Positions 16,901 through 46,460 of a stretch of 64,000 bases of DNA are shown piece after piece (position 1 is the stretch's first letter; every line of letters begins with the position of its first letter). The notes under the pieces were generated by a model that searched no databases, was not told where the DNA came from, and was given only the letters and a program-made list of their open reading frames with translations. The stretch is from Amphibalanus amphitrite (Eukaryota > Arthropoda > Thecostraca > Balanomorpha > Balanidae). The position numbers were made by a program, and so were the translations under genes. The stretch lies in the NCBI RefSeq assembly GCF_019059575.1, contig NW_024883405.1, positions 28,807 through 92,806 on the forward strand, read 5' to 3'.

Positions 16901-17990
16901 CGAGGTCATCATGTATATCATTCGATGCGTCTTGACGAGCTGAACACAATGAGACCATCCGCGCGGCTGTATCTTGTTCCTGTACGAAGTTATTGGCAAA
17001 AAACCTTTGGTGACCTTTGATGACGTCACATGACCTTACAGCTGCCCAACAGCAAAACTGACCTCAAGGTAGTGAAGGTGATCGTATAATGAAGTCATGT
17101 ATGGTATATGGGGCCATTCCGACCCGTTTTAGTGGTAAAAACAGGGAGTTGATTTTTCCCCCATTGACTTATAATGGGGAGGTCGCGAAATTGACCTGAC
17201 CTTAGGTCACCGATATCAAAATTCCGAGATAAACAAATTGTAGCTAAAATAGAATAGTTTTACTAATTACCTAATAACATCCTGCGACTTTCAAAGGCCT
17301 CCGACATCTACTGCAGCTCTGGCACGGTGACAAAGTTGCAAAAAAGTGACTTGAGGTTGGGTCATTCAAAGTGACCTGGTGACCTGACCTTAAAAGTTAG
17401 GAGGTTCAAACTTGCACACCATGTGTAAAATTGATGATGAAACAGTCGTACCAAATTTTGCGGCGCTACGCGCCGCGGTTTTCCCGCTATTCGCGAAAAA
17501 TCTCAGGGGGGCGGATATCCGCCCCCCCGTCGGTGCGCGTGTTATGAATTGAGTCCATCTCACGAATGGAACCCATCTAATGGATTTGACTCATCTCATT
17601 AACTGAACTCATCTGATGGATCTAACTCACCTCACAGACGGCCCTCTGCAGGCAGGCGGTGCCGTCCAGGCCAAACTGGGCGAACGCGGCGCGGATAGAC
17701 GAGAACACAGATGACCTCTCCATCAGCTGGCGCGCCTGTCTACCCGTGGCCCCCGCCGGAGGCGTGTACTGGAACTCGAGCCGCGACTGAAGGCGCATCC
17801 GGCCCGACTCGTCCGAGTTCCACAGGTTGAACAGGATCTTGGGCTCCAGCGCCATCGCGAACCCGTCCGGTAGACGAAGCTGGCGCTCCTGAGACGCTGG
17901 GAACGGGCTGGAGCCGCAGCACCTCGGCTCCGGGGATGCTGAGACAATGGCGGTGCTCAAGGCGAGGTAGATGCATACTGATAAACGCAT
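13971..17990 (-). CDS. DM4/DM12-family secreted protein, two exons
   Basis: Exon 1 (17990-17631) encodes a signal peptide MRLSVCIYLALSTAIVSA, an FNLWNSDESGRMRLQSRLEF segment and a final DGTACLQRAVCE. The last follows the DM4/DM12 pattern G-x-D-G-x-x-C-x-x-R-A-x-C-E. It ends GAG|GTGAGT. Exon 2 (14246-13971) starts after a CAG acceptor in phase 0 and opens TAAAPRHSDGLLGDLVTL, then CVPYIERCPVSMFN, the usual DM4/DM12 ending, and stops TGA. The spliced length is 636 bp, 211 aa. The family is known from arthropods, and its members are secreted with an undefined role. The 3.4-kb intron holds tandem copies of the exon 2 border and two nested transposons. Conserved Cys residues suggest disulphides. 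Confidence 0.85.
14201..14815. repeat. Tandem copies of the intron/exon 2 border of the DM4/DM12 gene
   Basis: The true exon 2 5' end (about 14201-14250) is repeated at about 14311-14367, 14470-14525, 14634-14690 and 14785-14815. Each copy contains GGCGGCCGCCGTCTG, which on the minus strand is a CAG acceptor followed by the first codons of exon 2. Spacers carry GTCAGTGCAGTCAGG repeats. A sixth, diverged copy near 16229-16275 is split by the insertion at 14894-16228. The copies are 80-100 percent alike by eye. Confidence 0.82.
15008..16054. mobile_element. TTAA-family element T1, 1,039 bp
   Basis: TTAA at 15008-15011 and 16051-16054 flanks an element starting CCCTCGCCCTGGCAGG and ending with its exact inverse. 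Next to each end is a hairpin of a G tract, GTCGATGCGAC or its inverse, and a C tract. The TTAA target and CCC ends match piggyBac-type elements. No transposase. The interior has GACCTGACC blocks and an ATCGAATGATATA-type dyad (around 15326 and 15440). Confidence 0.85.
16080..16161. repeat. TGAA tetranucleotide microsatellite
   Basis: About 20 uninterrupted TGAA units. Confidence 0.97.
16560..17545. mobile_element. Diverged TTAA-family element (T2)
   Basis: The left end near 16560 reads ACCGACGGGGGGGG and the right end is its inverse at about 17523-17532, with a GCGGATATCCGC hairpin between G and C tracts. The interior shares the family blocks: GACCTGGTGACCTGACC, AAATTTTGCGGCGCTACGCG and the ATCGAATGATATA dyad (16847 and 16915). 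No intact TTAA flanks remain. It lies in the DM4/DM12 intron close to exon 1. Confidence 0.62.
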
Positions 17991-18010
17991 GATGAAGGAA
18001 GGCTCCGATG

Positions 18011-19933
18011 ACGATAAAAGAACTCAATGCAGATGGCCTCAGTTTTCGACTTTTTGTTTTTCCCCAGCAGACTAGCGCAGAAAAACCCGTCAGCTGAGTC
18101 GGACTTCTTCAAGCAATTAACGGAGAGCTGTGCGGAATCTGTCCGAAATAGTTTATTAAAGTGTCAACTCTTGCCTGTCTTGATACTGTCCGGTGCGATC
18201 CTCAGTGCCCTTCTCCGTCCTCTCTCGTCTTCTGCCGTTTGCCGTCCGTCTTCCACCGTCCACCGACCGTCCACCGTCAACCGTCCACCGTCTGCCGTTC
18301 ACTTCTGCCGTCCACCGTCCACCGTGCGCCGTCCGCCGCTCTGAGATCGGTCGCGGCCCGACAGTGACTGTAGTGGGAGCCGACAGTGGCCGCCTGTTTT
18401 GACCTGCCGGTGACAGGGCACGGCGGCCCCTGTTTCTCCGTGATTGATCGTGTGTTGTCGTCCCCAGTCGCGGCCCCAGCGCCACCCGCGCCGTCGCCGA
18501 CACATTATGCTAATACGGGAGGCGGAAGGGTTGGCGGACTCATGTTCTGCCGTTGGTCCAACGACTGCACCCTAGGGAGAACGGCATATTTTCCGCGAGT
18601 GGATGAATGCTGGTGGGCCCCGATCGGCATGGTCACCGGTCCAGTAACCCATTAACAATGGTAGGGCGCAGACAGCAAAAAAGAGATGACTGGCAACTCA
18701 TGAGTTTCGTCAGATTTCTCCCGGCTGGTCCATCGCGACAAGTCAAATAGGGAAATACATTTGATGGGACTCACTTATTTTAGCTATTCTGGCCTTTAGA
18801 TAAATTACTTTACCTGGGATGATTGATGCATTTACTCAAATCTAGACTGGGCGTACCCACCTATGCCAACCACTAACCATTCACCATCAAGCATATGTTT
18901 CACATGTGTCATGCATCGGAAACTAAGAGAATGGCCACAGATTGCGCGCTGGATTCTCTTTCAAACCTAAAAGCGCTTCTCGAAACTCCTATCCTGCCCC
19001 GTCCATAGAGATCGTATAGGTAAGTACATCGTAAAGGTCAGAAAACACGTTATTTGTGACAGAGCTAAGTCACACGAATATTCTTTATGCCAACCAAATC
19101 ATTATTTGATTTTTCATCACAGAAGTTCTATGAGCTGCTTGGACGATGCATGATGAAAACATACATATGCTTTGGACTCTGAATGCACCTCCGAATCTGT
19201 AAGGGTTAAGGTATCGCATTATGGCATGAATTTGGCTTCGTCACGCTGCTGTATCACATAGCTCCTTGTACTTCAGCCATTCGACACGCATAGTTAGACA
19301 ACGTGGCGAAACGGACCTACGCGTTCGCCAAAACCTGCTTTACAGTTTAACGCGAAGATGACTATGCAGCCCACGGCCACTCAATGGAACGTATAACTGT
19401 AAACAGGTGATCAAAGAGACTAGAAGTGGTCGATGCGCTTCAGATGCAATGCGCGTGGTTATGGCCGGGTGCGTATTGCCACGTAGCGCCATTTAGTGAA
19501 TCAATGTTACCGTCCGGCCAGGGGTCGGTACTGGCAGTTAGTCTGACACTTTTGTCGTGAGCTGTCCTGTAAAATGCCTGAAGCCGATCTCTGAGCTACT
19601 TTGACACGTAATAACATCAAGTGTTCGCTAGTCTGTGAGTATTCGCCCGCAGCTTTTGGAGAAGCACTCCAGGCACAGGCCAGAAAATCCTCACATCAAG
19701 GATTTTAGCTGGCGAAGAGTACATAGTCTGACCTTTTGGGAAGTCACCAGTCATCTATCTGTTGTCATTTCTTACGACAGCTGTCCAAAAAGGATTTTCC
19801 GCAAGTATTTGTTGAATGACAAGGAAACAGAACACACTGTAGCTGGAGATCTGTGGCGCCCATCTTCAAGTACTTTAGTGACCTGTTTCAGGCCGCACCA
19901 TCCGACTCTCACGGCTCACTTCTGACACCAGCA
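18011..19933. other. Spacer between divergent genes; CCGTCCACCGT minisatellite
   Basis: This spacer separates the minus-strand DM4/DM12 gene from the plus-strand mucin-like gene, so promoters for both should lie here. A CCGTCCACCGT minisatellite with variants spans about 18236-18345. GC-rich sequence at 18400-18520 could belong to the DM4/DM12 promoter. No other gene seen. Confidence 0.5.
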
Positions 19934-24198: not shown

Positions 24199-25564
24199 CG
24201 GGGTTACATGAGCACAGTAAATACGTATTTAGCCGCTAATTCGAATTAGGAACGCATTACCGACTCATGTAGCCACCTGCTAGTACGAATCGGCAATCCG
24301 ATCCGCGGTTACATGAGCAAAGCAAATACGTATCACGATCGGATTCACCGCTAATGCGAATCAGGAGCGTACTACCGACTCATGTATCCACCTGCTAATA
24401 CGAATCGGCGGTCGGAACAAAATCCGCTGGGAAAGAGGCTTAGAAGCGAATAGGACCAAAGACGCGTTTACATAGGGTTTGTTGCAAGCTTATATCTCCG
24501 TCCGTGATGTTGCAAAAGATGTCAATGGTGCTTAACAATTTACAAAATGATCCCCTCTAAATATTTGAAGACCACTGCATCGAAATTATCGCCAAATTAA
24601 CGAGCTAGAGCCTCGTCAAATATGCTATGTAAACCGGGTTCAAGATACGTATCACAGGAACTATTTCTTCGCAAAGAGAAACATTAAAATGCAAAATAAT
24701 TGGTATTTTTTTCATTTTCTTCTTTTGAAATAATTTTTAAAAAATATGTCGGTATTTTGTCAAGTTTTCAACAATAAATATAGTGAAAACCAAATAGTAA
24801 ATATCCACATAATTTCAGTTTAAACATTTTTCTGACAGCACTACAGACAAATCAAGAGAGGCAATTGCCCAATGAGTCAAAACAAGACAACTTTATGTTC
24901 AACTTTTTTTTTTTAAGTTAATTGAGAATGTTTTGAGCAGATTAAATGCAAAAAAGACATAAGATAATAAATTTTTAATTTAGTCACCTCTATTGCTACG
25001 GAAGTGCGCCACATTTGTATGCTATTCCGTTTGTAATGCGCATCGGGCCGAGAGCCAAACTAGATCCGTTTGACGTCACTGATACGAATTTGCTCATGTA
25101 GTCGGTGCACTGAATGCGTTCTTGGGGAGCTGATGCGAATTAGCGTAGTGCGTATTTGGAATGTAACGGAAGTTAGCAGGGATTCAGCAGGGGTTCAGCA
25201 GGGATTCAGCAGGGATCGACGGCCCCTACGATTTCGCTGAATTTTGGTGGAGAGGTGCAGAATGGTGTCCTCTATCGAAAATCCTTGTGCCAAAATGCGG
25301 GGAATCCATCAGGGGGGCCACAAATCCCAAAAAACAGTATGCCCTCAGGGCACAATCGACGAACTTTGAAAACCATACTTCTAGCCGTCAAAACAGCTAA
25401 AAATGCACGTCATTCGAAAGAGGACAAAATTTTACATGCAACGGTACCAAATTTAGGGGGCTAGCGCCCCCCTGAACCGAACAATACAGCTTCAAATATA
25501 TGGGCCCGGGAGTATGCCCTCGGGGCATAAATAAACGTTTTCAACAATTTCAGGCCTATAACAT

Positions 25565-28172
25565 CGACAAAATCCAGCAATATGCACATCATTGGAAAGA
25601 GCGTAATTTCCCAAACAAAAAACCCAAGTAACATTTTTCGATGGGGCCCACCTGGGGCCCACGGGACCCAATTGAAATTTGGGGCCCAATGGGGCGGCCC
25701 CTACGATTTTCTTCAAAATTTGCACAGACACTCTCCTGGGCCCCCTCTTCAATCTGGCTGAAGAAACCTACCGGGGAATCCAAAGGAAGGGGCCCAAAGA
25801 GGGCCCCAAAGAAACCCCTTCTAAGTATTGCCCCTAATTTCGCGACCAACCCCGGCAATATGCACATCATTGGAAAGAGCGTAATTTCCCAAACAAAAAA
25901 CCCAAGTAACATTTTTCGATGGGGCCCACCTGGGGCCCACGGGACCCAATTGAAATTTGGGGCCCAATGGGGCGGCCCCTACGATTTTCTTCAAAATTTG
26001 CACAGACACTCTCCTGGGCCCCCTCTTCAATCTGGCTGAAGAAACCTACCGGGGAATCCAAAGGAAGGGGCCCAAAGAGGGCCCCAAAGAGGCCCTTTCT
26101 AAGTATTGCCCCTAATTTCGCGACCAACCCCGGCAATATGCACATCATTGGAAAGACCGTAATTTCCCAAACAAAAAACCCAAGTAACATTTTTCGATGG
26201 GGCCCACCTGGGGCCCACGGGACCCAATTGAAATTTGGGGCCCAATGGGGCGGCCCCTACGATTTTCTTCAAAATTTGCACAGACACTCTCCTGGGCCCC
26301 CTCTTCAATCTGGCTGAAGAAACCTACCGGGGAATCCAAAGGAAGGGGCCCAAAGAGGGCCCCAAAGAGGCCCTTTCTAAGTATTGCCCCTAATTTCGCG
26401 ACCAACCCCGGCAATATGCATATCATTGGAAAGAGCGTAATTTCCCAAACAAAAAACCCAAGTAACATTTTTCGATGGGGCCCACCTGGGGCCCACGGGA
26501 CCCAATTGAAATTTGGGGCCCAATGGGGCGGCCCCTACGATTTTCTTCAAAATTTGCACAGACACTCTCCTGGGCCCCCTCTTCAATCTGGCTGAAGAAA
26601 CCTACCGGGGAATCCAAAGGAAGGGGCCCAAAGAGGGCCCCAAAGAGGCCCTTTCTAAGTATTGCCCCTAACTTTGCGACCAACCCCGGCAATATGCACA
26701 TCATTGGAAAGAGCGTAATTTCCCAAACAAAAAACCCAAGTAACATTTTTCGATGGGGCCCACCTGGGGCCCACGGGACCCAATTGATATTTGGGGCCCA
26801 ACGGGGCGGCCCCTACGATTTTCTTCAAAATTTGCACAGACACTCTCCTGGGCACCCTCTTCAATCTGGCTGAAGAAACCTACCGGGGAATCCAAAGGAA
26901 GGGGCCCAAAGAGGGCCCCAAAGAGGCCCTTTCTAAATATTGCCCCTAATTTCGCGACCAACCCCGGCAATATGCACATCATTGGAAAGAGCGTAACTTC
27001 CCAAACAAAAAACCCAAGTAACATTTTTCGATGGGGCCCACCTGGGGCCCACGGGACCCAATTGAAATTTGGGGCCCAATGGGGCGGCCCCTACGATTTT
27101 CTTCAAAATTTGCACAGACACTCTCCTGGGCCCCCTCTTCAATCTGGCTGAAGAAACCTACCGGGGAATCCAAAGCAAGGGGCCCAAAGAGGGCCCCAAA
27201 GAGGCCCCTTCTAAGTATTGCCCCTAATTTCGCGACCAACCCCGGCAATATGCACATCATTGGAAAGAGCGTAATTTCCCAAACAAAAAACCCAGGTAAC
27301 ATTTTTCGATGGGGCCCACCTGGGGCCCACGGGACCCAATTGAAATTTGGGGGACAATGGGGCGGCCCCTACGATTTTCTTCAAAATTTGCACAGACACT
27401 CTCCTGGGCCCCCTCTTCAATCTGGCGGAAGAAACCTACCGGGGAATCCAAAGGAAGGGGCCCAAAGAGGGCCCCAAAGAGGCCCTTTCTAAGTATTGCC
27501 CCTAATTTCGCGACCAACCCCGGCAATATGCACATCATTGGAAAGAGCGTAATTTCCCAAACAAAAAACCCAAGTAACATTTTTCGATGGGGCCCACCTG
27601 GGGCCCACGGGACCCAATTGAAATTTGGGGCCCAATGGGGCGGCCCCTACGATTTTCTTCAAAATTTGCACGGACACTCTCCTGGGCCCCCTCTTCAATC
27701 TGGCTGAAGAAACCTACCGGGGAATCCAAAGGAAGGGGCCCAAAGAGGGCCCCAAAGAGGCCCTTTCTAAGTATTGCCCCTAATTTCGCGACCAACCCCG
27801 GCAATATGCATATCATTGGAAAGAGCGTAATTTCCCAAACAAAAACCCAAGTAACATTTTTCGATGGGGCCCACCTGGGGCCCACGGGACCCAATTGAAA
27901 TTTGGGGCCCAATGGGGCGGCCCCTACGATTTTCTTCAAAATTTGCACACACTCTCCTGGGCCCCCTCTTCAATCTGGCTGAAGAAACCTACCGGGGAAT
28001 CCAAAGGAAGGGGCCCAAAGAGGGCCCCAAAGACGCCCTTTCTAAGTATTGCCCCTAATTTCGCGACCAACCCCGGCAATATGCACATCATTGGAAAGAG
28101 CGTAATTTCCCAAACAAAAAACCCAAGTAACATTTTTCGATGGGGCCCACCTGGGGCCCACGGGACCCAATT
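25565..28172 (+). repeat. 278-bp tandem array, forward arm (about 10 units)
   Basis: Unit phase is marked by GGGGCCCACCTGGGGCCCAC, starting near 25641 and then every 278 bp (25919, 26197, 26475, 26753, 27031, 27309, 27587, 27864, 28140). The two short steps at the end reflect 1-2 bp deletions. Units differ at only a few positions. Open frames inside are a by-product of composition. Confidence 0.96.
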
Positions 28173-28179
28173 CAATTGA

Positions 28180-31100
28180 AATTGAAATTGCCGGGGTTGG
28201 TCGCAAAATTAGGGGCAATACTTAGAAAGGGCCTCTTTGGGGCCCTCTTTGGGCCCCTTCCTTTGGATTCCCCGGTAGGTTTCTTCAGCCAGATTGAAGA
28301 GGGGGCCCAGGAGAGTGTCTGTGCAAATTTTGAAGAAAATCGTAGGGGCCGCCCCATTGGGCCCCAAATTTCAATTGGGTCCCGTGGGCCCCAGGTGGGC
28401 CCCATCGAAAAATGTTACTTGGGTTTTTTCTTTGGGAAATTACGCTCTTTCCAAAGATGTGCATATTGCCGGGGTTGGTCGCGAAATTAGGGGCAATACT
28501 TAGAAAGGGCCTCTTTGGGGCCCTCTTTGGGCCCCTTCCTTTGGATTCCCCGGTAGGTTTCTTCAGCCAGATTGAAGAGGGGGCCCAGGAGAGTGTCTGT
28601 GCAAATTTTGAAGAAAATCGTAGGGGCCGCCCCATTGGGCCCCAAATTTCAATTGGGTCCCGTGGGCCCCAGGTGGGCCCCATCGAAAAATGTTACTTGG
28701 GTTTTTTGTTTGGGAAATTACGCTCTTTCCAATGATGTGCATATTGCCGGGGTTGGTCGCAAAATTAGGGGCAATACTTAGAAAGGGCCTCTTTGGGGCC
28801 CTCTTTGGGCCCCTTCCTTTGGATTCCCCGGTAGGTTTCTTCAGCCAGATTGAAGAGGGGGCCCAGGAGAGTGTCTGTGCAAATTTTGAAGAAAATCGTA
28901 GGGGCCGCCCCATTGGGCCCCAAATTTCAATTGGGTCCCGTGGGCCCCAGGTGGGCCCCATCGAAAAATGTTACTTGGGTTTTTTGTTTGGGAAATTACG
29001 CTCTTTCCAATGATGTGCATATTGCCGGGGTTGGTTGCGAAATTAGGGGCAATACTTAGAAAGGGCCTCTTTGGGGCCCTCTTTGGGCCCCTTCCTTTGG
29101 ATTCCCCGGTAGGTTTCTTCAGCCAGATTGAAGAGGGGGCCCAGGAGAGTGTCTGTGCAAATTTTGAAGAAAATCGTAGGGGCCGCCCCATTGGGCCCCA
29201 AATTTCAATTGGGTCCCGTGGGCCCCAGGTGGGCCCCATCGAAAAATATTACTTGGGTTTTTTGTTTGGGAAATTACGCTCTTTCCAATGATGTGCATAT
29301 TGCCGGGGTTGGTCGCGAAATTAGGGGCAATACTTAGAAAGGGCCTCTTTGGGGCCCAATTTGGGCCCCTTCCTTTGGATTCCCCGGTAGGTTTCTTCAG
29401 CCAGATTGAAGAGGGGGCCCAGGAGAGTGTCTGTGCAAATTTTGAAGAAAATCGTAGGGGCCGCCCCATTGGGCCCCAAATTTCAATTGGGTCCCGTGGG
29501 CCCCAGGTGGGCCCCATCGAAAAATGTTACTTGGGTTTTTTGTTTGGGAAATTACGCTCTTTCCAATGATGTGCATATTGCCGGGGTTGGTCGCGAAATT
29601 AGGGGCAATACTTAGAAAGGGCCTCTTTGGGGCCCTCTATGGGCCCCTTCCTTTGGATTCCCCGGTAGGTTTCTTCAGCCAGATTGAAGAGAGGGCCCAG
29701 GAGAGTGTCTGTGCAAATTTTGAAGAAAATCGTAGGGGCCGCCCCATTGGGCCCCAAATTTCAATTGGGTCCGGTGGGCCCCAGGTGGGCCCCATCGAAA
29801 AATGTTACTTGGGTTTTTTGTTTGGGAAATTACGCTCTTTCCAATGATGTGCATATTGCCGGGGTTGGTTGCGAAATTAGGGGCAATACTTAGAAAGGGC
29901 CTCTTTGGGGCCCTCTTTGGGCCCCTTCCTTTGGATTCCCCGGTAGGTTTCTTCAGCCAGATTGAAGAGGGGGCCCAGGAGAGTGTCTGTGCAAATTTTG
30001 AAGAAAATCGTAGGGGCCGCCCCATTGGGCCCCAAATTTCAATTGGGTCCCGTGGGCCCCAGGTGGGCCCCATCGAAAAATGTTACTTGGGTTTTTTGTT
30101 TGGGAAATTACGCTCTTTCCAATGATGTGCATATTGCCGGGGTTGGTCGCGAAATTAGGGGCAATACTTAGAAAGGGCCTCTTTGGGGCCCTCTTTGGGC
30201 CCCTTCCTTTGGATTCCCCGGTAGGTTTCTTCAGCCAGATTGAAGAGGGGGCCCAGGAGAGTGTCTGTGCAAATTTTGAAGAAAATCGTAGGGGCCGCCC
30301 CATTGGGCCCCAAATTTCAATTGGGTCCCGTGGGCCCCAGGTGGGCCCCATCGAAAAATGTTACTTGGGTTTTTTGTTTGGGAAATTACGCTCTTTCCAA
30401 TGATGTGCATATTGCCGGGGTTGGTCGCGAAATTAGGGGCAATACTTAGAAAGGGCCTCTTTGGGGCCCTCTTTGGGCCCCTTCCTTTGGATTCCCCGGT
30501 AGGTTTCTTCAGCCAGATTGAAGAGGGGGCCCAGGAGAGTGTCTGTGCAAATTTTGAAGAAAATCGTAGGGGCCGCCCCATTGGGCCCCAAATTTCAATT
30601 GGGTCCCGTGGGCCCCAGGTGGGCCCCATCGAAAAATGTTACCTGGGTTTTTTGTTTGGGAAATTACGCTCTTTCCAATGATGTGCATATTCCCGGGGTT
30701 GGTCGCGAAATTAGGGGCAATACTTAGAAAGGGCCTCTTTGGGGCCCTCTTTGGGCCCCTTCCTTTGGATTCCCCGGTAGGTCTCTTCAGCCAGATTGAA
30801 GAGGGGGCCCAGGAGAGTGTCTGTGCAAATTTTGAAGAAAATCGTAGGGGCCGCCCCATTGGGCCCCAAATTTCAATTGGGTCCCGTGGGCCCCAGGTGG
30901 GCCCCATCGAAAAATGTTACTTGGGTTTTTTGTTTGAGAAATTACGCTCTTTCCAATGATGTGCATATTGCCGGGGTTGGTCGCGAAATTAGGGGCAATA
31001 CTTAGAAAGGGCCTCTTTGGGGCCCTCTTTTGGCCCCTTCCTTTGGGTTCCCCGGTAGGTTTCTTCAGCCAGATTGAAGAGGGGGCCCAGGAGAGTGTTT

Positions 31101-33195
31101 GTGCAAATTTTGAAGAAAATCGTAGGGGCCGCCCCATTGGGCCCCAAATTTCAATTGGGTCCCGTGGGCCCCAGGTAGGCCCCATCGAAAAATGTTACTT
31201 GGGTTTTTTGTTTGGGAAATTACGCTTTTTCCAATGATGTGCATATTGCCGGGGTTGGTCGCAAAATTAGGGGCAATACTTAGAAAGGGCCTCTTTGGGG
31301 CCCTCTTTGGGCCCCTTCCTTTGGATTCCCCGGTAGGTTTCTTCAGCCAGATTGAAGAGGGGGCCCAGGAGAGTGTCTGTGCAAATTTTGAAGAAAATCG
31401 TAGGGGCCGCCCCATTGGGCCCCAAATTTCAATTGGGTCCCGTGGGCCCCAGGTGGGCCCCATCGAAAAATGTTACTTGGGTTTTTTGTTTGGGAAATTA
31501 CGCTCTTTCCAATGATGTGCATATTGCCGGGGTTGGTCGCGAAATTAGGGGCAATACTTAGAAAGGGCCTCTTTGGGGCCCTCTTTGGGCCCCTTCCTTT
31601 GGATTCCCCGGTAGGTTTCTTCAGCCAGATTGAAGAGGGGGCCCAGGAGAGTGTCTGTGCAAATTTTGAAGAAAATCGTAGGGGCCGCCCCATTGGGCCC
31701 CAAATTTCAATTGGGTCCCGTGGGCCCCAGGTGGGCCCCATCGAAAAATATTACTTGGGTTTTTTGTTTGGGAAATTACGCTCTTTCCAATGATGTGCAT
31801 ATTGCCGGGGTTGGTCGCGAAATTAGGGGCAATACTTAGAAAGGGCCTCTTTGGGGCCCTCTTTGGGCCCCTTCCTTTGGATTCCCCGGTAGGTTTCTTC
31901 AGCCAGATTGAAGAGGGGGCCCAGGAGAGTGTCTGTGCAAATTTTGAAGAAAATCGTAGGGGCCGCCCCATTGGGCCCCAAATTTCAATTGGGTCCCGTG
32001 GGCCCCAGGTGGGCCCCATCGAAAAATGTTACTTGGGTTTTTTGTTTGGGAAATTACGCTCTTTCCAATGATGTGCATATTGCCGGGGTTGGTCGCGAAA
32101 TTAGGGGCAATACTTAGAAAGGGCCTCTTTGGGGCCCTCTTTGGGCCCCTTCCTTTGGATTCCCCGGTAGGTTTCTTCAGCCAGATTGAAGAGGGGGCCC
32201 AGGAGAGTGTCTGTGCAAATTTTGAAGAAAATCGTAGGGGCCGCCCCATTGGGCCCCAAATTTCAATTGGGTCCCGTGGGCCCCAGGTGGGCCCCATCGA
32301 AAAATGTTACTTGGGTTTTTTGTTTGGGAAATTACGCTCTTTCCAATGATGTGCATATTGCCGGGGTTGATCGCAAAGTTAGGGGCAATACTTAGAAAGG
32401 GCCTCTTTGGGGCCCTCTTTGGGCCCCTTCCTTTGGATTCCCCGGTAGGTTTCTTCAGCCAGATTGAAGAGGGGGCCCAGGAGAGTGTCTGTGCAAATTT
32501 TGAAGAAAATCGTAGGGGCCGCCCCATTGGGCCCCAAATTTCAATTGGGTCCCGTGGGCCCCAGGTGGGCCCCATCGAAAAATGTTACTTGGGTTTTTTG
32601 TTTGGGAAATTACGCTCTTTCCAATGATGTGCATATTGCCGGGGTTGGTCGCGAAATTAGGGGCAATACTTAGAAAGGGCCTCTTTGGGGCCCTCTTTGG
32701 GCCCCTTCCTTTGGATTCCCCGGTAGGTCTCTTCAGCCAGATTGAAGAGGGGGCCCAGGAGAGTGTCTGTGCAAATTTTGAAGAAAATCGTAGGGGCCGC
32801 CCCATTGGGCCCCAAATTTCAATTGGGTCCCGTGGGCCCCAGGTGGGCCCCATCGAAAAATGTTACTTGGGTTTTTTGTTTGGGAAATTACGCTCTTTCC
32901 AATGATGTGCATATTGCCGGGGTTGGTCGCGAAATTAGGGGCAATACTTAGAAAGGGCCTCTTTGGGGCCCTCTTTGGGCCCCTTCCTTTGGATTCCCCG
33001 GTAGGTCTCTTCAGCCAGATTGAAGAGGGGGCCCAGGAGAGTGTCTGTGCAAATTTTGAAGAAAATCGTAGGGGCCGCCCCATTGGGCCCCAAATTTCAA
33101 TTGGGTCCCGTGGGCCCCAGGTGGGCCCCATCGAAAAATGTTACTTGGGTTTTTTGTTTGGGAAATTACGCTCTTTCCAATGATGTGCATATTGC
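28180..33195 (-). repeat. 278-bp tandem array, inverted arm (about 18 units)
   Basis: Same unit in opposite orientation, with phase marks from 28412 to 33138 every 278 bp. Variants such as CAAAATTAGG for CGAAATTAGG recur in several non-adjacent units, suggesting exchange between units. Confidence 0.96.
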
Positions 33196-33880
33196 TGGAT
33201 TTTGTCGATGTTATAGGCCTGAAATTGTTGAAAACGTTTATTTATGCCCCGAGGGCATACTCCCGGGCCCATATATTTGAAGCTGTTTTGTTCGGTTCAG
33301 GGGGGCGCTAGCCCCCTTAATTTGGTACCGTTGCATGTAAAATTTTGTCCTCTTTCGAATGACGTGCATTTTTAGCTGTTTTGACGGCTAGAAGTAGGGT
33401 TTTCAAAGTTCGTCGATTGTGCCCTGAGGGCATACTGTTTTTTGGGATTTGTGGCCCCCCTGATGGATTCCCCGCATTTTGGCACTAGGATTTTCGATAG
33501 AGGACACCATTCTGCACCTCTCCACCAAAATTCAGCGAAATCGTAGGGGCCGTCGATCCCTGCTGAATCCCTGCTGAACCCCTGCTGAATCCCTGCTAAC
33601 TTCCGTTACATGTATTTGGAACGGATCGCTCATGTAACCGAAACGTCCGAGGCACACGATTCGGGCCGTATTTCACAAGAACTATTCTTTGCTGACTGGA
33701 AGCGTCAAAATGCAAAATACTAAGCATTTTTTTTATTGGCTGCCTCGTAGAAAATAGCAAAAAAAATGTTGGTATTTTGGTTTAGTCTTTGGATGTGAAA
33801 TAAAATGAATGAAATATTTTGATACATAATTTTTTCTGACCACCCTGCTGTCGCTGCATGGCGAATCAGTGCCCACTGAC

Positions 33881-34437
33881 TTAAAGGAAATAGTTCACTT
33901 TCACGAAATTATTTTTTTTTGCAACGATTTATGATTTTTTATGTTCAAAATAATCAGCAAAGAAAATAAAACCTTTTTATAACAAAAGATTTTTTTTCTA
34001 TATTTTGATATAGGAAGAACTTTTCAGTTTCTGTAAGGCACAGGCGATCCAGTATGAAAAGAGCATGGGTCCCGAAAATTCTTCAGAAACAGAGAAATTA
34101 TCGCAGCCACCGGCATTTGGGCGATCTGCTCGATCTGAAAATGTTCCCCTGAATGTCCTAATTGATCAGTACGAGAATTTCTCTAGAGTTCTCGTAGATA
34201 ATTTCTCTAGTTTCTGAATAATTTTCGGGACCCATGCTCTTTTCATACTGGATGGAAATATATGCAAGGCACACATCCTCAACGCAAGACACCTTTTTCG
34301 GGACGAGAAATAGAATATCTTTGCCTAGGGTGATCATTGGGCTGTAAAATCTCCTGATTTATGCTCGTCTCAGCCTAAGCTACAGAACTGCTATTCCAGT
34401 TCAAAACCCATGTTAAAAAGTGAACTATTTCCTTTAA
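33881..34437. mobile_element. TTAA-flanked MITE with internal hairpin, 549 bp
   Basis: TTAA at 33881-33884 and 34434-34437 flanks ends AGGAAATAGTTCACTT and its inverse. The interior has a second inverted pair of about 50 bp (34049-34105 against 34190-34245) containing TCCAGTATGAAAAGAGCATG. It is distinct from the CCCTCGCC family. No ORF. Confidence 0.8.
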
Positions 34438-34758
34438 AACAAGAAAACTTTGTTTTCATTTTTTGATTTCATGTTAATTTTAAATGTTTTTGAGACTATC
34501 AAATGATATAACTATTTAAAATTTAGTTCAGTCGTCCCGGTAAATGCCGCAACTGCGCCATGACTGTACGCTAATCCTATTCCGTTTGTGATACGAATTA
34601 CCGGCCGTCGAGGAGTCAGCCCGGGTGAGCCAAACAAGATCCGTTTGACGTAGATAAAACGAATTAGTCTCATGTAACCGGTGCCGTAGATACGTTCGTG
34701 GGGAGCTGATGCGCATTAGCGTAGTGCGTATTTGGAACGGATCGCTCATGTAACCCCG

Positions 34759-39242: not shown

Positions 39243-39500
39243 CCCAGTAAACATGACGACGTCGGCCCGACATCGGCTGGACGTCGGATATGCCCGCATG
39301 TTCCGACGTCCAGCCGAAGTCCAGCCGACGTCGAGCCGACGTCGGGCCGCGATCGTTTGCCGAGGTTGACGAGATCGTTCGTCGTTGGACCGACGGGGCC
39401 GACGTCGGCATGTTTATTGGGACAACGCGCCAAAAATATCAACCGGCGGCGGGATTCGAGCCCCCCAGTCGCCGACGTCGGCATGTTTATTGGGACAACA
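39243..39500. repeat. GACGTCGGC-rich repeat unit with CAGTAAACATG ends
   Basis: It opens CCCAGTAAACATG (39243-39255) and has the inverse CATGTTTATTGGG at 39409-39421, repeated again near 39483. Between lie degenerate CCGACGTCGG dyads. A second such array is at 40142-40402, also ending CATGTTTACTGGG. Confidence 0.7.
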
Positions 39501-39514
39501 CGCCAAAAGAATCA

Positions 39515-39590
39515 GCCGGCGATGGGATTCGAACCCCGTGTCATTCGAACGCGAGGTTAGTGCGCTAACCACTACACCACGCAGCCAACT
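39515..39590 (-). repeat. tRNA-derived sequence (SINE head or tRNA pseudogene)
   Basis: On the minus strand it has an A-box-like TGGTGTAGTGGTTAGCGC and a B-box-like GGGTTCGAATCCC at tRNA spacing. The acceptor stem does not pair and the anticodon arm is degenerate, so it is not a functional tRNA. Downstream on that strand lies CCAATAAACATGCCGACG, linking it to the GACGTCGGC repeats. It may be a SINE whose body contains that repeat. Confidence 0.6.
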
Positions 39591-39600
39591 AATAAATTTG

Positions 39601-40080
39601 GTTTGTTTTGTTGGGTTATGCCCTTTCGGTCTGACAAGACCATTTCAGAGCCAGAAGGATGAGAGGATGGAGACATCTGACATTGGTCTTCTTGGCGAGC
39701 ACCCTGGGTCCAGTTCATATAGAGTCCCTGGTCCCATTGCTGTTACGTGACACTTATTGGAAAGGGCGACCCCACAATGGATTCATATAGCCCCTCTTAA
39801 CACACCTGCACCAACGTTTCCCAAAGTGTCCCTTTGATAAGTGGCACTTTGGCAAAGTGACACTTGCCGACTGGCCTTTCTATATGAACTGGACCCGGCC
39901 CTGGTGAGTTGCCGGGGCTGAGCCTGACCAAAGGATAGGCCGAGCAGCCCCCAAGCACTCACCGCACCCGGCTACGGGCGAGCTCGGCTTACGGGCAATC
40001 CCAAATGGGATAAAGTTTCCCGTCCAGTCCGGATCAGGGGGTTGCGGCGTGGAGGAAGATTTGAGTCTCCTGAGGATATT
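39601..40080 (+). repeat. Dispersed ~310-bp repeat, copy 2, interrupted
   Basis: It matches 46698-47020 through GTTTGTTTTGTTGGGTTA, CCGGGGCTGAGCC, CGCACCCGGCTACGGG and TGAGTCTCCTGAGGATA. It is split by the 193-bp MITE at 39706-39898. Confidence 0.8.
39702..39902. mobile_element. MITE with GGGTCCAGTTCATATAGA ends
   Basis: The ends at 39706 and 39898 are inverted copies of GGGTCCAGTTCATATAGA. CCCT flanks both sides. Removing it restores the dispersed repeat. Confidence 0.78.
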
Positions 40081-40141
40081 TTGAATACAGAAGCTCTTAA
40101 TGAAACATTAAACATGTATTTTATATTATTTTAACGGTCAA

Positions 40142-40402
40142 AAAAGCGGCCGATGTCGGTCCGACGTCGCCCCGACGTCGGCCCGACGTCGGCTGGACCT
40201 CAGCAATTGATCTCGGTCCGACGTCGGCCCAACGTCGGCTGGACCTCGGCTGGACGTCGGAACATGCGGGCATATCCGACATCCAGCCGACGTCGTGCCG
40301 AGGTTGGACCGACGTCGGGCCGACGTCGGCATGCCGATGCCGAGTTGCCGACGTCACCCCGACGTCGGCCGACGTCGGGCCGACGTCGGCATGTTTACTG
40401 GG
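40142..40402. repeat. GACGTCGGC array, second copy
   Basis: Degenerate GTCGGNCCGACGTCGGC dyads end in CATGTTTACTGGG at 40390-40402; the left end lacks the matching terminus. Confidence 0.75.
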
Positions 40403-41412: not shown

Positions 41413-42930
41413 TCACGGACCCCGCCTGATACTGTACCGGGGGCGGTTGAGACGCCCGTACGTCGTTCGGTACGGCGCAGGCGGACCGAGGGCGGCAGGG
41501 GGCGGTTCGGGTCCCGCGCCGCGATCTGGGCGATGCTGCGCGCACCATTTAGCGGTCGGTGGTCTCACTCTGCCACCAGGTACGCGCTCGAGGGGACGTG
41601 TGACCAGTTCCGTCTGTGTCGGGACTCTTGGCGGCGGTGCGATCTTGTTCCGCCTCTGGCAGAGGGTACACGCCCTGCAGTGCTCCTTGATGTCTTTGTA
41701 CATCCCGGGCCACACGAAGTTTTGCTTCACCCCTAGCGTGGTGTGGCGGTGTCCCATGTGCCCGCTCGTCGGCGGCTCGTGTGCAAGCTGCATCACGTGG
41801 GTGTGCAGGGAAGGCGGCACCGCTGCCCTGAACCCACTCGCCGTGGTAATGCCGACGAGGTCGTCCACCACCTGAACCTGGTGAGCTCCTGGTCCTAAGA
41901 CCTTGCCCCACTCTCCCAGCATCAAGCTGTCGGGGGACGTCTGATGGCTGAAGCACCGTCGGGCGTAGTTGAGCGGTGGGCTCTCGTCTTGCGCCCTACG
42001 CATGTCGCCCCGCTCCACCGAGCTGGTGTCGCCTGCGTCGCCGTCGGCACCTGGACGGCTGCTGGCCTGTGCGCCTCTGCCCGCCACCAGTAGTGCTTCG
42101 CTGGCCGAGTCGACCTCACTGCTGGCCTGGACGGTCAGCCTGTCTGTTTGGCCTGCGTTGCCGCTGCTGGGCGACCCGCCCTCGCAGCGGCCCGCGCTCT
42201 CCGGCTCTGGTTCATTTGAGGTCACCATGACCTCGACGTAGCCGCTGCTGGGCTGCCCGCCCCCGCAGCGACTCGTCCCGGACCCGTGGGGCTCGACGGG
42301 GACCCCACATGGGGTCGCTTGGGTCGAACCGTGTCGTTGTCGGTTGAACCCTGCCGACTGGAAGACGGCGCGAGCAGTGCACATCACTAGAGCCACTGCC
42401 CGCTCGCAGGCCTGTGCGCAGCGCCTTGCCAGACCCGCGTTCTCGACCCCCGAACGTTCGCAGCGCCTGGACCCCTGCAGCCTCACCTCCGCGTGGCTCG
42501 GTAGGGGGAGTGTCAGGCTCCCGAGCCTGATCACCCCGTTCCCGTCGTCGATGACCGTCTTCTCGCGGCAGCAGAAGTCTCTTCCGAGCACAATGTCGTA
42601 CAGCAGGCCCCCAACTATTTCCACCTCTGGACAGACGAATGCCTTCTGCTGTATCTCGAGCCCCAAATTGTGCACCACGCCTAGCATCTGTAGCTCGTTA
42701 CCTCCGGCCCCCCTTGCGGGCCGCGTGCTTGGTGAGGACTGGAGGTGCAAACTTCCCCTGATCGTGTCCCAGAAATCCCCCCTTATCATGGAAAAGTCGG
42801 CCCCGGTATCCACCAGAGCCCAAGCCTGGTGACCTGCGACCCGCACCTCTACGGCTGACGCCGTCAACCCCGTACTGTGGGACTCTGATGGATTACGTAC
42901 CGGCACTGGTCCCGTCGCACCGGTACTCAC
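41413..42930 (-). CDS. Gypsy-type protease with integrase zinc-finger, RT deleted in frame
   Basis: This 505-aa open frame opens at a GTG codon and is entered by frameshift rather than by initiation. Residues 41-45 read DTGAD, the catalytic aspartate of a retropepsin, and 115-119 LGRDF-type flap sequence follows. From about residue 360 it matches the integrase N-terminal zinc finger: His residues in HEPPTSGH, then WPGMYKDIKEHC and CTLC. No reverse transcriptase, RNase H or DDE core lies between or after, yet the frame is unbroken, so the deletions kept the frame. The last 60 residues are out-of-family sequence. Such an element would depend on enzymes from an intact relative. Confidence 0.8.
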   Translation of the reverse strand: MSTGATGPVPVRNPSESHSTGLTASAVEVRVAGHQAWALVDTGADFSMIRGDFWDTIRGSLHLQSSPSTRPARGAGGNELQMLGVVHNLGLEIQQKAFVCPEVEIVGGLLYDIVLGRDFCCREKTVIDDGNGVIRLGSLTLPLPSHAEVRLQGSRRCERSGVENAGLARRCAQACERAVALVMCTARAVFQSAGFNRQRHGSTQATPCGVPVEPHGSGTSRCGGGQPSSGYVEVMVTSNEPEPESAGRCEGGSPSSGNAGQTDRLTVQASSEVDSASEALLVAGRGAQASSRPGADGDAGDTSSVERGDMRRAQDESPPLNYARRCFSHQTSPDSLMLGEWGKVLGPGAHQVQVVDDLVGITTASGFRAAVPPSLHTHVMQLAHEPPTSGHMGHRHTTLGVKQNFVWPGMYKDIKEHCRACTLCQRRNKIAPPPRVPTQTELVTRPLERVPGGRVRPPTAKWCAQHRPDRGAGPEPPPAALGPPAPYRTTYGRLNRPRYSIRRGP

Positions 42931-42932
42931 TC

Positions 42933-42939
42933 GTTTCCC
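42933..42939 (-). promoter_or_regulatory. Candidate -1 ribosomal frameshift site GGGAAAC
   Basis: In the gag frame the codons are CAG GGA AAC GAG TGA, giving the canonical slippery pattern G GGA AAC two codons before the gag stop (42927-42929). Shifting back one base enters the protease frame, which is open from there. The same heptamer is used by some retroviruses and retroelements. I did not model a downstream pseudoknot. Confidence 0.6.
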
Positions 42940-43897
42940 TGTGGCTGACCCACCGCAGCTACGTGAGTGCCCCTATGCATGAGCGCGGGATCGGGAGGGC
43001 ACGCTTGTCCCTGACGTGTGGGCTGCCCCGCAGCGGGTGTGCCGTAGGGGGCAGGTGGGTAATCCACCCTCCGCTGCCCTTCACGGTCGCACCCCGCTGC
43101 CTGTGCATCTCCCCGCTGCCAGTGTCCCGTGTGTGTGGCGGGGCCCTCCATCGACGGGATATCAGGCGTGCCTATGGCTGCAGTCGCGGGGGCAGGCGGG
43201 CACCCCGCCCATCGCTGTCCCCCACGGCTGCACCCGGGACAGAACGGCGCCCATCCGCCGGCCTCCTCAGGCGGACCACGGCACTATGGTTGGAAACGGC
43301 CTCACGGATGGCCGTGGGCAATCTCGGAATATATGTATATTTGGGGTGTCATTCTGTTGGAAATTGATGAAATGTTTTGAATTGGGCAGAAAAAATTATT
43401 TAGTTGCGCATTTAGTCTCCATTATTGTACGTGGAATCGGGAGTTTCTGAGAGTGGCTTTTTTGGTGCGCCGTCAAAGGTTTAAACAACCGCGCTGGTGA
43501 TAGCATGTGGAGTACCTCCATGACGTTGTAAAACTGGATTATTATATATCAAAATAATCCTTGTTATGTTGGCTATCGAGTGGAGTGACTCTTTTTCCCA
43601 TGCGTGTTCAAAATCAGGAACGGCATTGCATTCTGTTTGCAGTGTCACCACAGCAATATTTGCAAAATTACGTTTATGTTTCATTGGACATACAAAAAGT
43701 TCTCCATCGACCTCCATTGAGCTTTTTGGCAGAATAAGTCTCTGTTCAATTCTGCGTAAGGGGAACGTAAAAGCAGACTGCGCACTTGTGCGCAAAATCG
43801 TCCGTGAAGCTTCATCTCCCGAGGCGTACCTACCCGTCGCTTCGTTAGCACCAGGTCGGCTCGTCAGTCTTGCAATCGCTTATCCTTATAAATGATG

Positions 43898-44197
43898 GTA
43901 AGAAGCAGGGTTGCGGAGTCGTGGTGGAGCCAAATCCGACTCCGACTACGACTCCGACTCCTGACTCGTTGCCATGACTCCGGCCGACTCTGTCTCCGAC
44001 TCCGGACCCCTGCCAGTGTTTCGGAGTCGTGATGGAGCTGTTCCGATTCGGACCGACTCCGACTTCCACTGCGGGCTCCTGACCGACCCCGACTCCGACT
44101 CCGACTCCTGGCTCGTTGCCACGACTCTGGGCGACTCTGGCTCCGACTCCGACTCTGACTCCGACTCTGACTTCGACTCCGCACCCCTCGTAAGAAG
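43898..44197. mobile_element. hAT-like MITE made of GGAGTC hexamers, 284 bp
   Basis: The element at 43906-44189 starts CAGGGTTGCGGAGTC and ends GACTCCGCACCCCTC. The 8-bp TSD GTAAGAAG lies at 43898-43905 and 44190-44197. The interior is almost entirely GACTCC hexamers in both orientations. The Ser/Arg-rich open frames read across it are artefacts. Confidence 0.82.
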
Positions 44198-44599
44198 TAA
44201 CTGCTCGCCGCTGCACCTGGAGTATGGATATCGTGCAAACGTGTATGGATATCCTGGAGTATGGATATGGATATCCACCGACAGAGCAGACATACAGACA
44301 TGCTGTAAACGCCATTACACTGCCAATACCATGGCAAATCAAATGGCTATCTATGGTTTTTGATCATCGTTCTACATTTCCCAAAATCTTGAACTGAATG
44401 TTGGCAATTTCTCGTGACTACTTCACGACCATGATGCATGCATTTCTGAAATTGATCTTTTTTCAACCAGCTACGTACTCGTATGATAAAATGAATGTCA
44501 CCATCGTGTTCTACGCCCAAAAGTACCCATAAAACATGTGTCATGCATGGGCTGCGAATAGGTACCAGTTTTAATTTTCGGGGTTATGTGCTTACCTGA

Positions 44600-45036
44600 T
44601 TGACCTGACTTTGACCCTGGCCAGTGGCCTATGTTTGACTGACCCCTACATTGATCTGACACTCTTTTAGCACTTATATGAAGGGTTGTGACAGTTGTGA
44701 CAGATTGTTTAGGACCAACTGATGACTGAATTTATTTAGGACCAACTGATGACGATATAATCGAAACGCGAAACGCGAGGCACCGATTGCGAGGTTCTAA
44801 AGTCCATGCTACTGAAAACCCGATTTCAAGTGTTTGACCTGACCTTGACCCGACCTGTGACCTCGAAATTCAACTTTAAAGTATTCATGTGAATCGTCTC
44901 GTCGCGTTCTTCTTTCGTTTGCCGCGCCTCGTGCGCTTCGCTGCGCCTATTTGTTCGCGAGTTATCGGCTGGGGGCGTTGAACGCCCCCCCCCCCCCGGG
45001 CAAACGGCGGATGGGGAAATACCCCAGCAACTGCCG
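44600..45036. mobile_element. TTAA-family right end (T5), truncated
   Basis: Family blocks (GACCTGACCTTGACC, TTTGTTCGCGAGTTATCGG) run into a GGGGGCGTTGAACGCCCCC hairpin with an extended C tract, then CTGCCGGG and TTAA at 45033-45036. No left end found inside the Transib-like element. Confidence 0.55.
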
Positions 45037-46460
45037 GGTTAATCTGACGCATGTTTTGTCATTTGATCGTCATTTTATTTCTTACTTTTTTGCCCAATCT
45101 AAAAAAAAATCATAAATACTCTTTCTCCAAATTTTTGACCGTTTATGACCAATAGTAAGACACTGTGCGTCACTACGTTGATATGTCTTGCCCTAAAGCA
45201 TAACAACAATATCCATTCAGTAATAGCAGTATTCAAAACATGTTCAAAATGCCTCGCGATATCGATAACATAACGAAAGACATAGGCGACTTATAACATA
45301 CTTGCAATGATGACGTCACACACGCGTGACGTGACGTGACCTCGTCATTTCTGAGTTACTGTATGATGCACGAAAGACACTGGTATACCTATGCAAAGTT
45401 TCATCGCAGTCGGTCTACGCATTAACAAGTTATGGGCAAAACATTTTTTCGCGTTGACCCCCGGCCATCCGTGAGGCCGTTTCCAACCATAGTGCACGGG
45501 GGCGTTCCGCCCACTCCAGGCCCGCCTGCTGGTAACCGGGTGGAAAGGGCCGCCCCGCCCGCTCGTTGGCCTGCGCCTGCCGCGCCGGACAGTTGCGGAT
45601 CAGGTGGTCCGGGCTATTGCAATGGAAACAGCGTCACCCCGGGCCCTGCCTGTTCGGGTTCGGTCGCCCTCGTTGGGGGTTCCTCGCCCCCGCCCCGTGC
45701 CCCGTTGTGTCAAGGCGCTGCAGGGCGCGCTGCAGGTCCCCTATGCCCCTCTCCAGCGCGTCTAGGCGATCTGTGCCCGGCGCGTCCCGGTCTCGGACTG
45801 CCAACGCCTCACCGCTCTCGTTGGGAGGGCGCATCGCTCGGAGTGCGTCCTGCTGTTGTTGGAATTTAGCGGCGACATCCATGGCCTCCATGAGGCTGGC
45901 CGGGTCCTTTGTCAGCACCCGCATCCGCAGCTGTTCGTCGCGGAGGCCGCACACGAAGCGGCTGACGATAGTCGCCTCCACGGACGGGTCACCGGCTGCC
46001 GCCCCCGGGTACGCCTCCCGGCTGGCCTGGCGCACCCTGTCCGCGAAGTCGCGAGTCGCCTCGCCGGGCTGCTGTCGGATGCTCGCCAGTTCAGCTTGTG
46101 CCTGCATTGCGTTCTTTGCCGTGCCGAAACGGGCTTCCAGTGCGGCTACCGTTTGTTGCAGGTTGCCTTGGATGTCGTCCGACAGCGAGGCGAAGTAATC
46201 CAGAGCGCTGCCTTGCAGAAGGCTGAGTAGGCTCTGCAGCCTTTTTTCTTCCGAGAAGGCGACCGTCTTTGCCCGGAATCGTCGGTACCATCGACCCCAT
46301 GCCTGTTTGCTCTCCCCCGTGAAATTTTCAAAGTTGGTCAAGAGTAGAAATTCTCTCTCCATCTTACGATGCTACACTGAGGTCAATTAAAAAAACTAGA
46401 TTTAAATTTACTTAAGAAATGGTGTAAGCCAACGAATGCGCGTCCGCTTGTGTCCGAACA

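What the first reader, a model, noticed from the sequence alone, without database searches (positions are those of the whole stretch)
25152..33620. 8.45-kb foldback element built from a 278-bp satellite, with a 9-bp target duplication
Unique 400-bp inverted ends, about 10 and 18 tandem units in opposite orientation, a near-zero spacer and GTATTTGGA on both sides show that the whole satellite palindrome moved, or was made, as one insertion. Units are nearly identical and share sporadic variants, implying recent amplification or gene conversion. The 10:18 imbalance means arms can grow independently. An encoded transposase is absent, so an unlinked enzyme is needed. This is the best candidate for a new element type.
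Basis: partly seen in the sequence, partly recalled or inferred. Interest (0 to 1): 0.88.

Follow-up and report, generated by a model that had tools for sequence, protein, structure and literature searches.

The report
Young foldback transposon made of satellite
This 8.45-kb stretch is one copy of a young family of DNA transposons built almost wholly of two opposing tandem-repeat arrays; the whole palindrome jumps as one piece, and comparing copies shows how its arms get rewritten.

Summary
An 8,451-bp element (25161-33611) has 415-bp inverted ends, head-on arrays of 9.36 and 18.00 units of 278 bp, a 14-bp centre and an exact 9-bp duplication. A paralogous empty site at 34627-34755 carries one GTATTTGGA.

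The ends are not unique: the genome holds 197 tips and 2,868 units. Of 12 copies read at both ends, 11 have 9-bp duplications and one 10 bp. In 14 of 14 centres seen, array meets array with no middle domain. They form nine junction types, two of them shared by four and three separate insertions that differ in arm length. So the palindrome moves whole and its arms then change separately. In some copies, runs of variant units recur in opposite arms (not in the window copy). This, with the centre scars, fits abortive gap repair closed by alternative end joining (inferred).

Best filed as a nonautonomous foldback element, probably Mutator-like; no transposase with matching tips was found. The closest published element is Tetris. 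New variant of a known kind.

The parts
25152..25160 (.). left copy of the 9-bp target-site duplication GTATTTGGA
25161..25575 (+). left terminal inverted repeat, 415 bp; tip ATGTAACGGAAG
   Evidence: alignment of the two ends, 4 substitutions; 34 ends from 22 loci compared
25175..25216 (+). subterminal tandem repeat, 3.8 copies of 11 bp (AGCAGGGATTC)
   Evidence: Tandem Repeats Finder
25576..28172 (+). left satellite array, 9.36 units of 278 bp
28173..28186 (.). centre junction insert CAATTGAAATTGAA (centre type 1); 11 of its 14 bases match unit position 94 on
28187..33196 (-). right satellite array, 18.00 units of 278 bp in opposite orientation
33197..33611 (-). right terminal inverted repeat, 415 bp
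33556..33597 (-). subterminal 11-bp tandem repeat, 3.8 copies, mirror of 25175-25216
33612..33620 (.). right copy of the target-site duplication GTATTTGGA
34627..34755 (+). paralogous empty site with a single GTATTTGGA at 34728-34736
   Evidence: joined flanks align through the join, 112 of 129 bases; positions of the 9-mer

Best explanation
A nonautonomous foldback DNA transposon, most likely of the Mutator (MULE) superfamily, from a young family with roughly a hundred or more copies in its genome. SHOWN: the whole palindrome, ends plus both satellite arrays plus centre scar, inserts as one unit and duplicates 9 bp of target. Copies that share one centre junction differ in the length of each arm separately. 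INFERRED (my odds about 0.75 for MULE): a transposase made elsewhere recognises the 415-bp ends (tip ATGTAACGGAAG plus 11-bp subterminal repeats) and moves the element by cut and paste. INFERRED (about 0.5): the satellite arms are rewritten when the gap left by excision is refilled from a sister or homologous copy. Repair strands slip or re-enter at the wrong unit, adding or losing blocks of units; they sometimes copy the opposite arm; and when synthesis aborts, the two ends are closed by alternative end joining. That step would leave microhomology or templated inserts at a new centre and remove any former middle domain.
For: Target duplications in 12 of 12 copies read at both ends: 9 bp in 11, 10 bp in one. 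Empty-site paralog with one 9-mer. 197 tips genome-wide, control 0; 33 inward-facing pairs 2.1-15.8 kb long among the 100 listed. In 14 of 14 centres seen, array joins array. Centre type 1 in four insertions (window, C329, C615, C340) with four different target duplications; in all four, the arm ending at unit position 98 carries end variant 216A and the other arm 295A. Variant run 263C.266T / 250A / 211C.243C / 52G.184G in the same order in the window, C329 and C340. Arm lengths within one centre type: 9.36:18.00, 18.36:24.99, 8.36:8.00, 12.36:8.00 (position-98 arm first). C340 and C615 differ by a four-unit block in one arm only. Block duplications of 2-5 units, different in the two arms of C10a. 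Ordered variant blocks shared by opposite arms: C818 8 units and C132 5 units (0 of 500 shuffles each), C114 4 units (5 of 500), C340 and C615 3 units (7 and 15 of 500). Arm variant profiles correlate within elements, mean r 0.49 in 14 elements, 0 of 2,000 permutations. Centre inserts of types 1 and 2 templated from the unit, 11 of 14 bases, 0 of 1,000 shuffles. Microhomology at six other junctions sums to 13 bp, P about 0.011 against random unit phases. MULE-like anatomy: long inverted ends with short subterminal repeats and 8-10 bp duplications, as in Muta1 and Tm1 (passages). The genome holds 111 MULE-domain and 36 FLYWCH matches.
Against: No transposase with matching tips found: none of 111 MULE hits lies within 110 kb of the tips checked (100 of 197 listed, plus 15 positions); three MULE loci that I read have other ends. 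The window copy itself shows no inter-arm sharing, and 9 of 14 elements show no ordered inter-arm block with fewer than 20 of 500 shuffles reaching it. Ends of one element are no more alike than ends of different elements (mean 1.9 against 2.06 differences), so conversion does not reach the ends. The 30-bp centre insert of C1379 is not templated (524 of 1,000 shuffles). Block changes and inter-arm copying could also arise in ordinary replication or recombination, without excision. Two copies (C104b, C1379b) have one arm that ends in unrelated DNA.
Confidence: 0.75

Rival explanations
1. Same element, but the arms and centres are remodelled by ordinary replication slippage, unequal exchange and breakage of the extruded palindrome, without any link to excision.
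For: Block duplications of 2-5 units are typical of tandem arrays. Eight of nine centre types are asymmetric by 50-133 bp in unit phase and one (C10b) by 8 bp, as central deletions of a palindrome would also give.
Against: It does not by itself explain why no copy seen keeps a middle domain (14 of 14 centres). Not excluded by any search.
Confidence: 0.4
2. The mobilising enzyme is not a MULE but belongs to another 8-9 bp superfamily (P/Galileo-like, Merlin or hAT).
For: Galileo is a P-superfamily element with internally repeated long ends (PMC3573991). No matching MULE was found.
Against: Galileo duplications in D. willistoni are 7-8 bp (PMC4168063 passages), against 9-10 bp here in 12 of 12. 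I did not search the genome for P, Merlin or hAT domains.
Confidence: 0.15
3. An independent satellite was captured between transposon ends, rather than grown inside the element.
For: The 278-bp unit shares only short stretches with the ends (23 bp at 87%, 15 bp exact; best score reached by 3 of 500 shuffles). Exact-unit arrays without a listed exact tip exist at C1:362907-366824 and C12:1597969-1601885.
Against: Genome-wide there are 2,868 units for 197 tips, 14.6 per tip, close to 13.1 per arm in 12 complete copies, so no large free satellite is needed.
Confidence: 0.15
4. Assembly artefact: the inverted half is a mirrored misassembly.
For: Long palindromes are hard to assemble; several copies run off contig ends.
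Against: The ends differ at 4 positions and the arms differ in length and variant order; flanks are different unique DNA with a 9-bp duplication; the same architecture recurs at 14 centres with nine junctions.
Confidence: 0.02

Closest known systems
Tetris, foldback transposon of Drosophila virilis (PMC4079207; I read parts 1, 3 and 4 of 6 and passages)
   Same: Long inverted ends with an outer flanking domain and inner tandem repeats of about 220 bp; 8-10 bp duplications; no transposase found; the repeats expand into satellite-like arrays; one allelic pair differs by one repeat.
   Different: Tetris has a middle domain, and only three structurally complete copies were found; its long arrays are described as disrupting the element. 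Here arms of 4 to 33 units sit in 12 complete insertions, no middle domain is seen at 14 centres, and centres can be used as lineage markers. No sequence comparison with Tetris was made.
Galileo (PMC3573991, outline and sections 7 and 10; PMC4168063, passages)
   Same: Long, internally repeated inverted ends; copies with ends only; arms that vary separately; abortive, slipping or template-switching gap repair proposed by its authors; one D. willistoni copy of 9.0 kb with 2 to 9 repeats per region.
   Different: P superfamily, 7-8 bp duplications; tandem expansion limited to subfamily F (2-3 repeats) in D. mojavensis and to one copy in D. willistoni.
Muta1 of Aedes aegypti (PMC5225508, passages)
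   Same: MULE with a short terminal motif followed by short subterminal tandem repeats; 8-9 bp duplications; many nonautonomous derivatives; described as a type 2 foldback element.
   Different: 12-bp repeats, no 278-bp satellite arms; the active transposase is known.
Tm1 of root-knot nematodes and the Phantom/Rehavkus groups of MULEs (PMC3169594 and PMC6446971, passages)
   Same: Composite foldback-like ends and 9-bp duplications; Phantom listed from Crustacea and Arthropoda; minisatellites noted in Rehavkus and in aphid Phantom.
   Different: Repeats of about 14 bp in Tm1; coding elements known; no pure satellite palindromes in the passages I saw.
Drosophila FB and Arabidopsis FARE (recalled, and named in the papers above)
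   Same: Arms of variable length made of short tandem repeats, 9-bp duplications.
   Different: Short repeat periods; details recalled, not checked here.

Membership tests
Foldback (FB-like) transposons | long inverted ends containing tandem repeats, of different length in the two arms | tested here: met
Foldback (FB-like) transposons | target duplication of 8-10 bp | tested here: met
   12 of 12 complete copies, 9 or 10 bp; empty-site paralog
Foldback (FB-like) transposons | middle domain between the arms, as in Tetris | tested here: not met
   array joins array at 14 of 14 centres seen. A middle domain describes Tetris; I recall that loopless FB copies exist, so I do not treat it as defining for the class
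Mutator (MULE) superfamily | 8-11 bp target duplication | tested here: met
   range from PMC6446971 passages
Mutator (MULE) superfamily | long ends, often with short subterminal tandem repeats | tested here: met
   415 bp, 11-bp repeat of 3.8 copies at each tip; compared with Muta1 passages
Mutator (MULE) superfamily | MULE transposase encoded between the same ends in an autonomous member | tested here: inconclusive
   111 MULE, 36 FLYWCH and 7 PF20700 matches in the genome; none of the 111 MULE hits within 110 kb of 115 tip positions checked; 97 of 197 tips were not listed
Tetris family | sequence relationship of ends or repeat | not tested
   no Tetris sequence was at hand
P superfamily (Galileo) | 7-8 bp target duplication | tested here: not met
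   9 bp in 11 and 10 bp in 1 of 12
Helitron carrying satellite repeats | no target duplication and no long inverted ends | tested here: not met
   duplication and 415-bp inverted ends

The most novel reading that the evidence does not exclude
A transposon whose cargo is nothing but satellite: transposition disperses ready-made satellite palindromes, and each failed gap repair rewrites the arms from each other and seals a new centre, so the cycle of excision and repair is itself the engine that makes, lengthens and spreads satellite arrays.
Probability: 0.35. Interest if true: 0.75.

Novelty: new variant of a known kind. Interest (0 to 1): 0.52.

Why it matters
How tandem satellites grow and how they reach scattered chromosomal sites are long-standing questions. 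Here arrays of 4-33 units per arm sit inside complete, very young insertions with clean target duplications. The centre junction works as a lineage tag, so growth, loss and copying between arms can be read unit by unit in insertions of common descent. This makes the idea that transposon repair builds satellite arrays directly testable. Perfectly mirrored kilobase arms are also strong sources of hairpin RNA and of chromosome breakage (general knowledge).

Tried and rejected
Rejected: chance (control 0; 12 of 12 duplications); assembly mirror (see rivals); Helitron; a free satellite carrying the ends by accident. Led nowhere: viral contigs held no exact 21-bp tip, phage records no similar DNA, Rfam and tRNA scans no hit. 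Three MULE loci chosen for intact frames have other ends. The C10a insert of 5.35 kb, first suspected to be a middle domain, encodes a 1,525-aa frame that by eye is a Gypsy-type polyprotein and lies inside one arm. The 1.18-kb insert of C104b also lies inside an arm. Two tip pairs, C1:2668948-2675981 and C3:295863-305845, show no exact unit 30-mer. They may hold units with a variant there or a different interior. No MULE, FLYWCH or PF20700 hit lies in them. A second unit pattern that would decide did not complete.

Rows left out: of the 40 end matches, 29 lie in loci that I read and 11 do not. Of 197 tips, 100 were listed. Units with under about 95% of their length matched were left out of the 521. 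C1379 has an error-rich stretch at the contig start (identity down to 89.9%). The C818 and C1379 left arms are cut by the edge of what I held.
Full report
What is there. The element runs from 25161 to 33611 (8,451 bp). Its 415-bp ends are inverted copies with four substitutions. Each tip reads ATGTAACGGAAG and continues into 3.8 copies of an 11-bp repeat. Inside lie 9.36 units of 278 bp on the plus strand and 18.00 on the minus strand, separated by 14 bp at 28173-28186. GTATTTGGA flanks it on both sides. I joined the two flanks with one copy of the 9-mer and searched the window: an uninterrupted paralog at 34627-34755 aligns straight through the join, 55 of the last 56 bases alike, with a single GTATTTGGA.

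Genome-wide context. The window lies in an unnamed assembly of 807.6 Mb in 2,644 contigs. A DM4/DM12 domain suggests an arthropod; that reading is recalled, not tested. The 416-bp end query gave 40 scored matches of 215 candidates, all printed as 99-100% identical. A 30-bp tip pattern with up to two mismatches gives 94 plus 103 places, control 0. The listed 100 contain 33 inward-facing pairs 2,128-15,835 bp apart, median 7,441. A unit 30-mer gives 1,556 plus 1,312 places, control 0. That is 14.6 per tip, against 13.1 units per arm in the 12 complete copies, so nearly all units can be accounted for by elements. This is a ratio argument, not a census.

Copies compared. I read 22 loci with an end, covering 29 of the 40 matches. 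Twelve are complete. All 12 carry direct repeats: 9 bp in 11 and 10 bp in C545. Arm lengths are 7.63:6.88, 10.43:11.87, 5.88:25.63, 32.89:4.37, 14.88:24.63, 18.36:24.99, 8.00:8.36, 8.00:12.36, 10.00:5.59, 12.96:11.72, 7.36:15.00 and, in the window, 9.36:18.00. C10a carries a 5.35-kb nested insert within one arm, so its length is not all array.

Centres as lineage tags. Fourteen centres were seen and in each the arrays meet directly. They fall into nine types. Type 1 is identical, in one orientation or the other, in the window, C329, C615 and C340; type 2 recurs in C545, C132 and C104a (one substitution apart); seven are single. The four type 1 insertions have four different target duplications. 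In all four, the arm that ends at unit position 98 carries 216A in its end and the other arm carries 295A. The run 263C.266T, 250A, 211C.243C, 52G.184G appears in the same order in the same arm of the window, C329 and C340. So ends, array order and centre travelled together. Type 2 copies have no such arm-specific end variants, but variant 273G is found in them alone, 51 of 51 occurrences, in both arms of all three.

Arms change separately. C340 and C615 have the same eight-unit arm on one side and differ on the other by a block of four units, which the window and C329 partly retain. C132 repeats a block of five units, and C329 blocks of three and four. In C10a one arm is a three-unit pattern repeated three times, while the other alternates every second unit.

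Arms are copied from each other in some elements. Variant profiles of the two arms correlate within elements (mean r 0.49, 14 elements, 0 of 2,000 permutations). Pairs of arms from different elements of one centre type give 0.40 on average, other pairs -0.06, with a maximum of 0.92 among those, so some elements with unseen centres are probably kin. Ordered blocks shared by opposite arms reach eight units in C818 and five in C132 (0 of 500 shuffles each), four in C114 (5 of 500) and three in the sister copies C340 and C615 (7 and 15 of 500). The other nine elements, the window copy among them, show no such block at that level. The ends themselves are not homogenised.

Age. Thirteen substitutions are private to one end among 34 ends of 415 bp, by my count, about 0.09%. 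Consensus-identical units remain in both arms of the window copy. The family is young; no clock was calibrated.

How it probably works. The duplication length, the long ends and the short subterminal repeats fit a Mutator-like transposase acting in trans. Among published relatives I saw passages on Muta1, Tm1, Phantom and Rehavkus and most of the text on Tetris and Galileo. The genome has MULE transposases with open frames near 470-510 aa, some with FLYWCH fingers. None of the 111 MULE hits lies within 110 kb of the tips checked, and the three loci that I read have other ends. Three near-complete PF20700 loci and one partial lie on contigs without a listed exact tip.

For the arms, gap repair after excision is my preferred engine. 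It predicts unit-block gain and loss on either side, copying from the opposite arm, loss of any middle domain, and end-joining scars at the centre. The scars are there: two centre inserts are templated from the unit (11 of 14 bases, 0 of 1,000 shuffles), and six other junctions hold 13 bp of microhomology in all, more than random phases give (P about 0.011). The latter comparison mixes a local-alignment measure with an exact one and should be taken lightly. The C1379 insert is not templated. Gap repair with slippage and template switching is proposed for Galileo in PMC4168063 (passage). Papers on polymerase theta were seen only as a listing. That the scars formed at excision, rather than at broken palindromes, is not shown.

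Known or new. It works like, and meets the tested features of, foldback transposons; Tetris is nearest. What I did not find in print in nine searches (open-access library only) is a family whose complete, still-dispersing copies consist of inverted ends and large satellite arrays alone, with centres that tag lineages. That is a new variant, not a new kind.

Noticed in passing
33877-34437: Small inverted-repeat element with 21-bp ends TTAAAGGAAATAGTTCACTTT, bounded by TTAA on both sides, between the foldback element and its empty-site paralog; it contains a second inverted pair (34047-34253).
   Followed up: partly
52397-53116: 720-bp element with 64-bp inverted ends (97%) that contain about two copies of an 18-bp tandem repeat: another small element with repeated ends.
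   Followed up: no
24205-24379, 25093, 33629, 34669, 34745: The host sequence around the insertion carries the motif CTCATGTA eight times in both orientations, and ATGTAACCGAAA, two mismatches from the element tip, sits 21 bp outside the right end; two-mismatch matches to the tip are expected by chance in the window.
   Followed up: partly
25161-25575: The end holds a degenerate internal repeat (176-195 and 351-370, 90%) and two short stretches like the 278-bp unit (23 bp at 87%, 15 bp exact), hinting that the satellite grew from the end.
   Followed up: partly
9273-11819 and 55429-57279: LINE-type retrotransposon pieces: endonuclease domain in the first, reverse transcriptase in the second (closest relative 92% identical).
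   Followed up: no
41413-46371: LTR retrotransposon pieces with gag, aspartic protease and integrase zinc-binding domains.
   Followed up: no
17625-18023: Frame with the first third of a DM4/DM12 domain at its end, probably an exon of a host gene.
   Followed up: no
39243-40402: Inverted clusters of the near-palindromic 11-mer CCGACGTCGGC, about 21 degenerate copies.
   Followed up: no
L029 1-8600 with L030 1-3668 (G000:C104:749000-761267): One array of a foldback copy stops without an opposite arm and abuts another tandem repeat with a period near 3.6 kb.
   Followed up: partly
L042 1426-3535 (G000:C44): MULE with FLYWCH finger (491-aa frame) between its own repeated, foldback-like inverted ends of other sequence.
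   Followed up: partly
G000:C6:1028669-1032354, C188:165226-168803, C2571:10238-13916: Three loci with near-equal scores for the rare PF20700 Mutator domain in two stretches about 2-3 kb apart, plus one partial on C148.
   Followed up: no
G000:C13:2041502-2054849: One array arm spans at least 48 units next to a tip, longer than any arm that I read in full.
   Followed up: no
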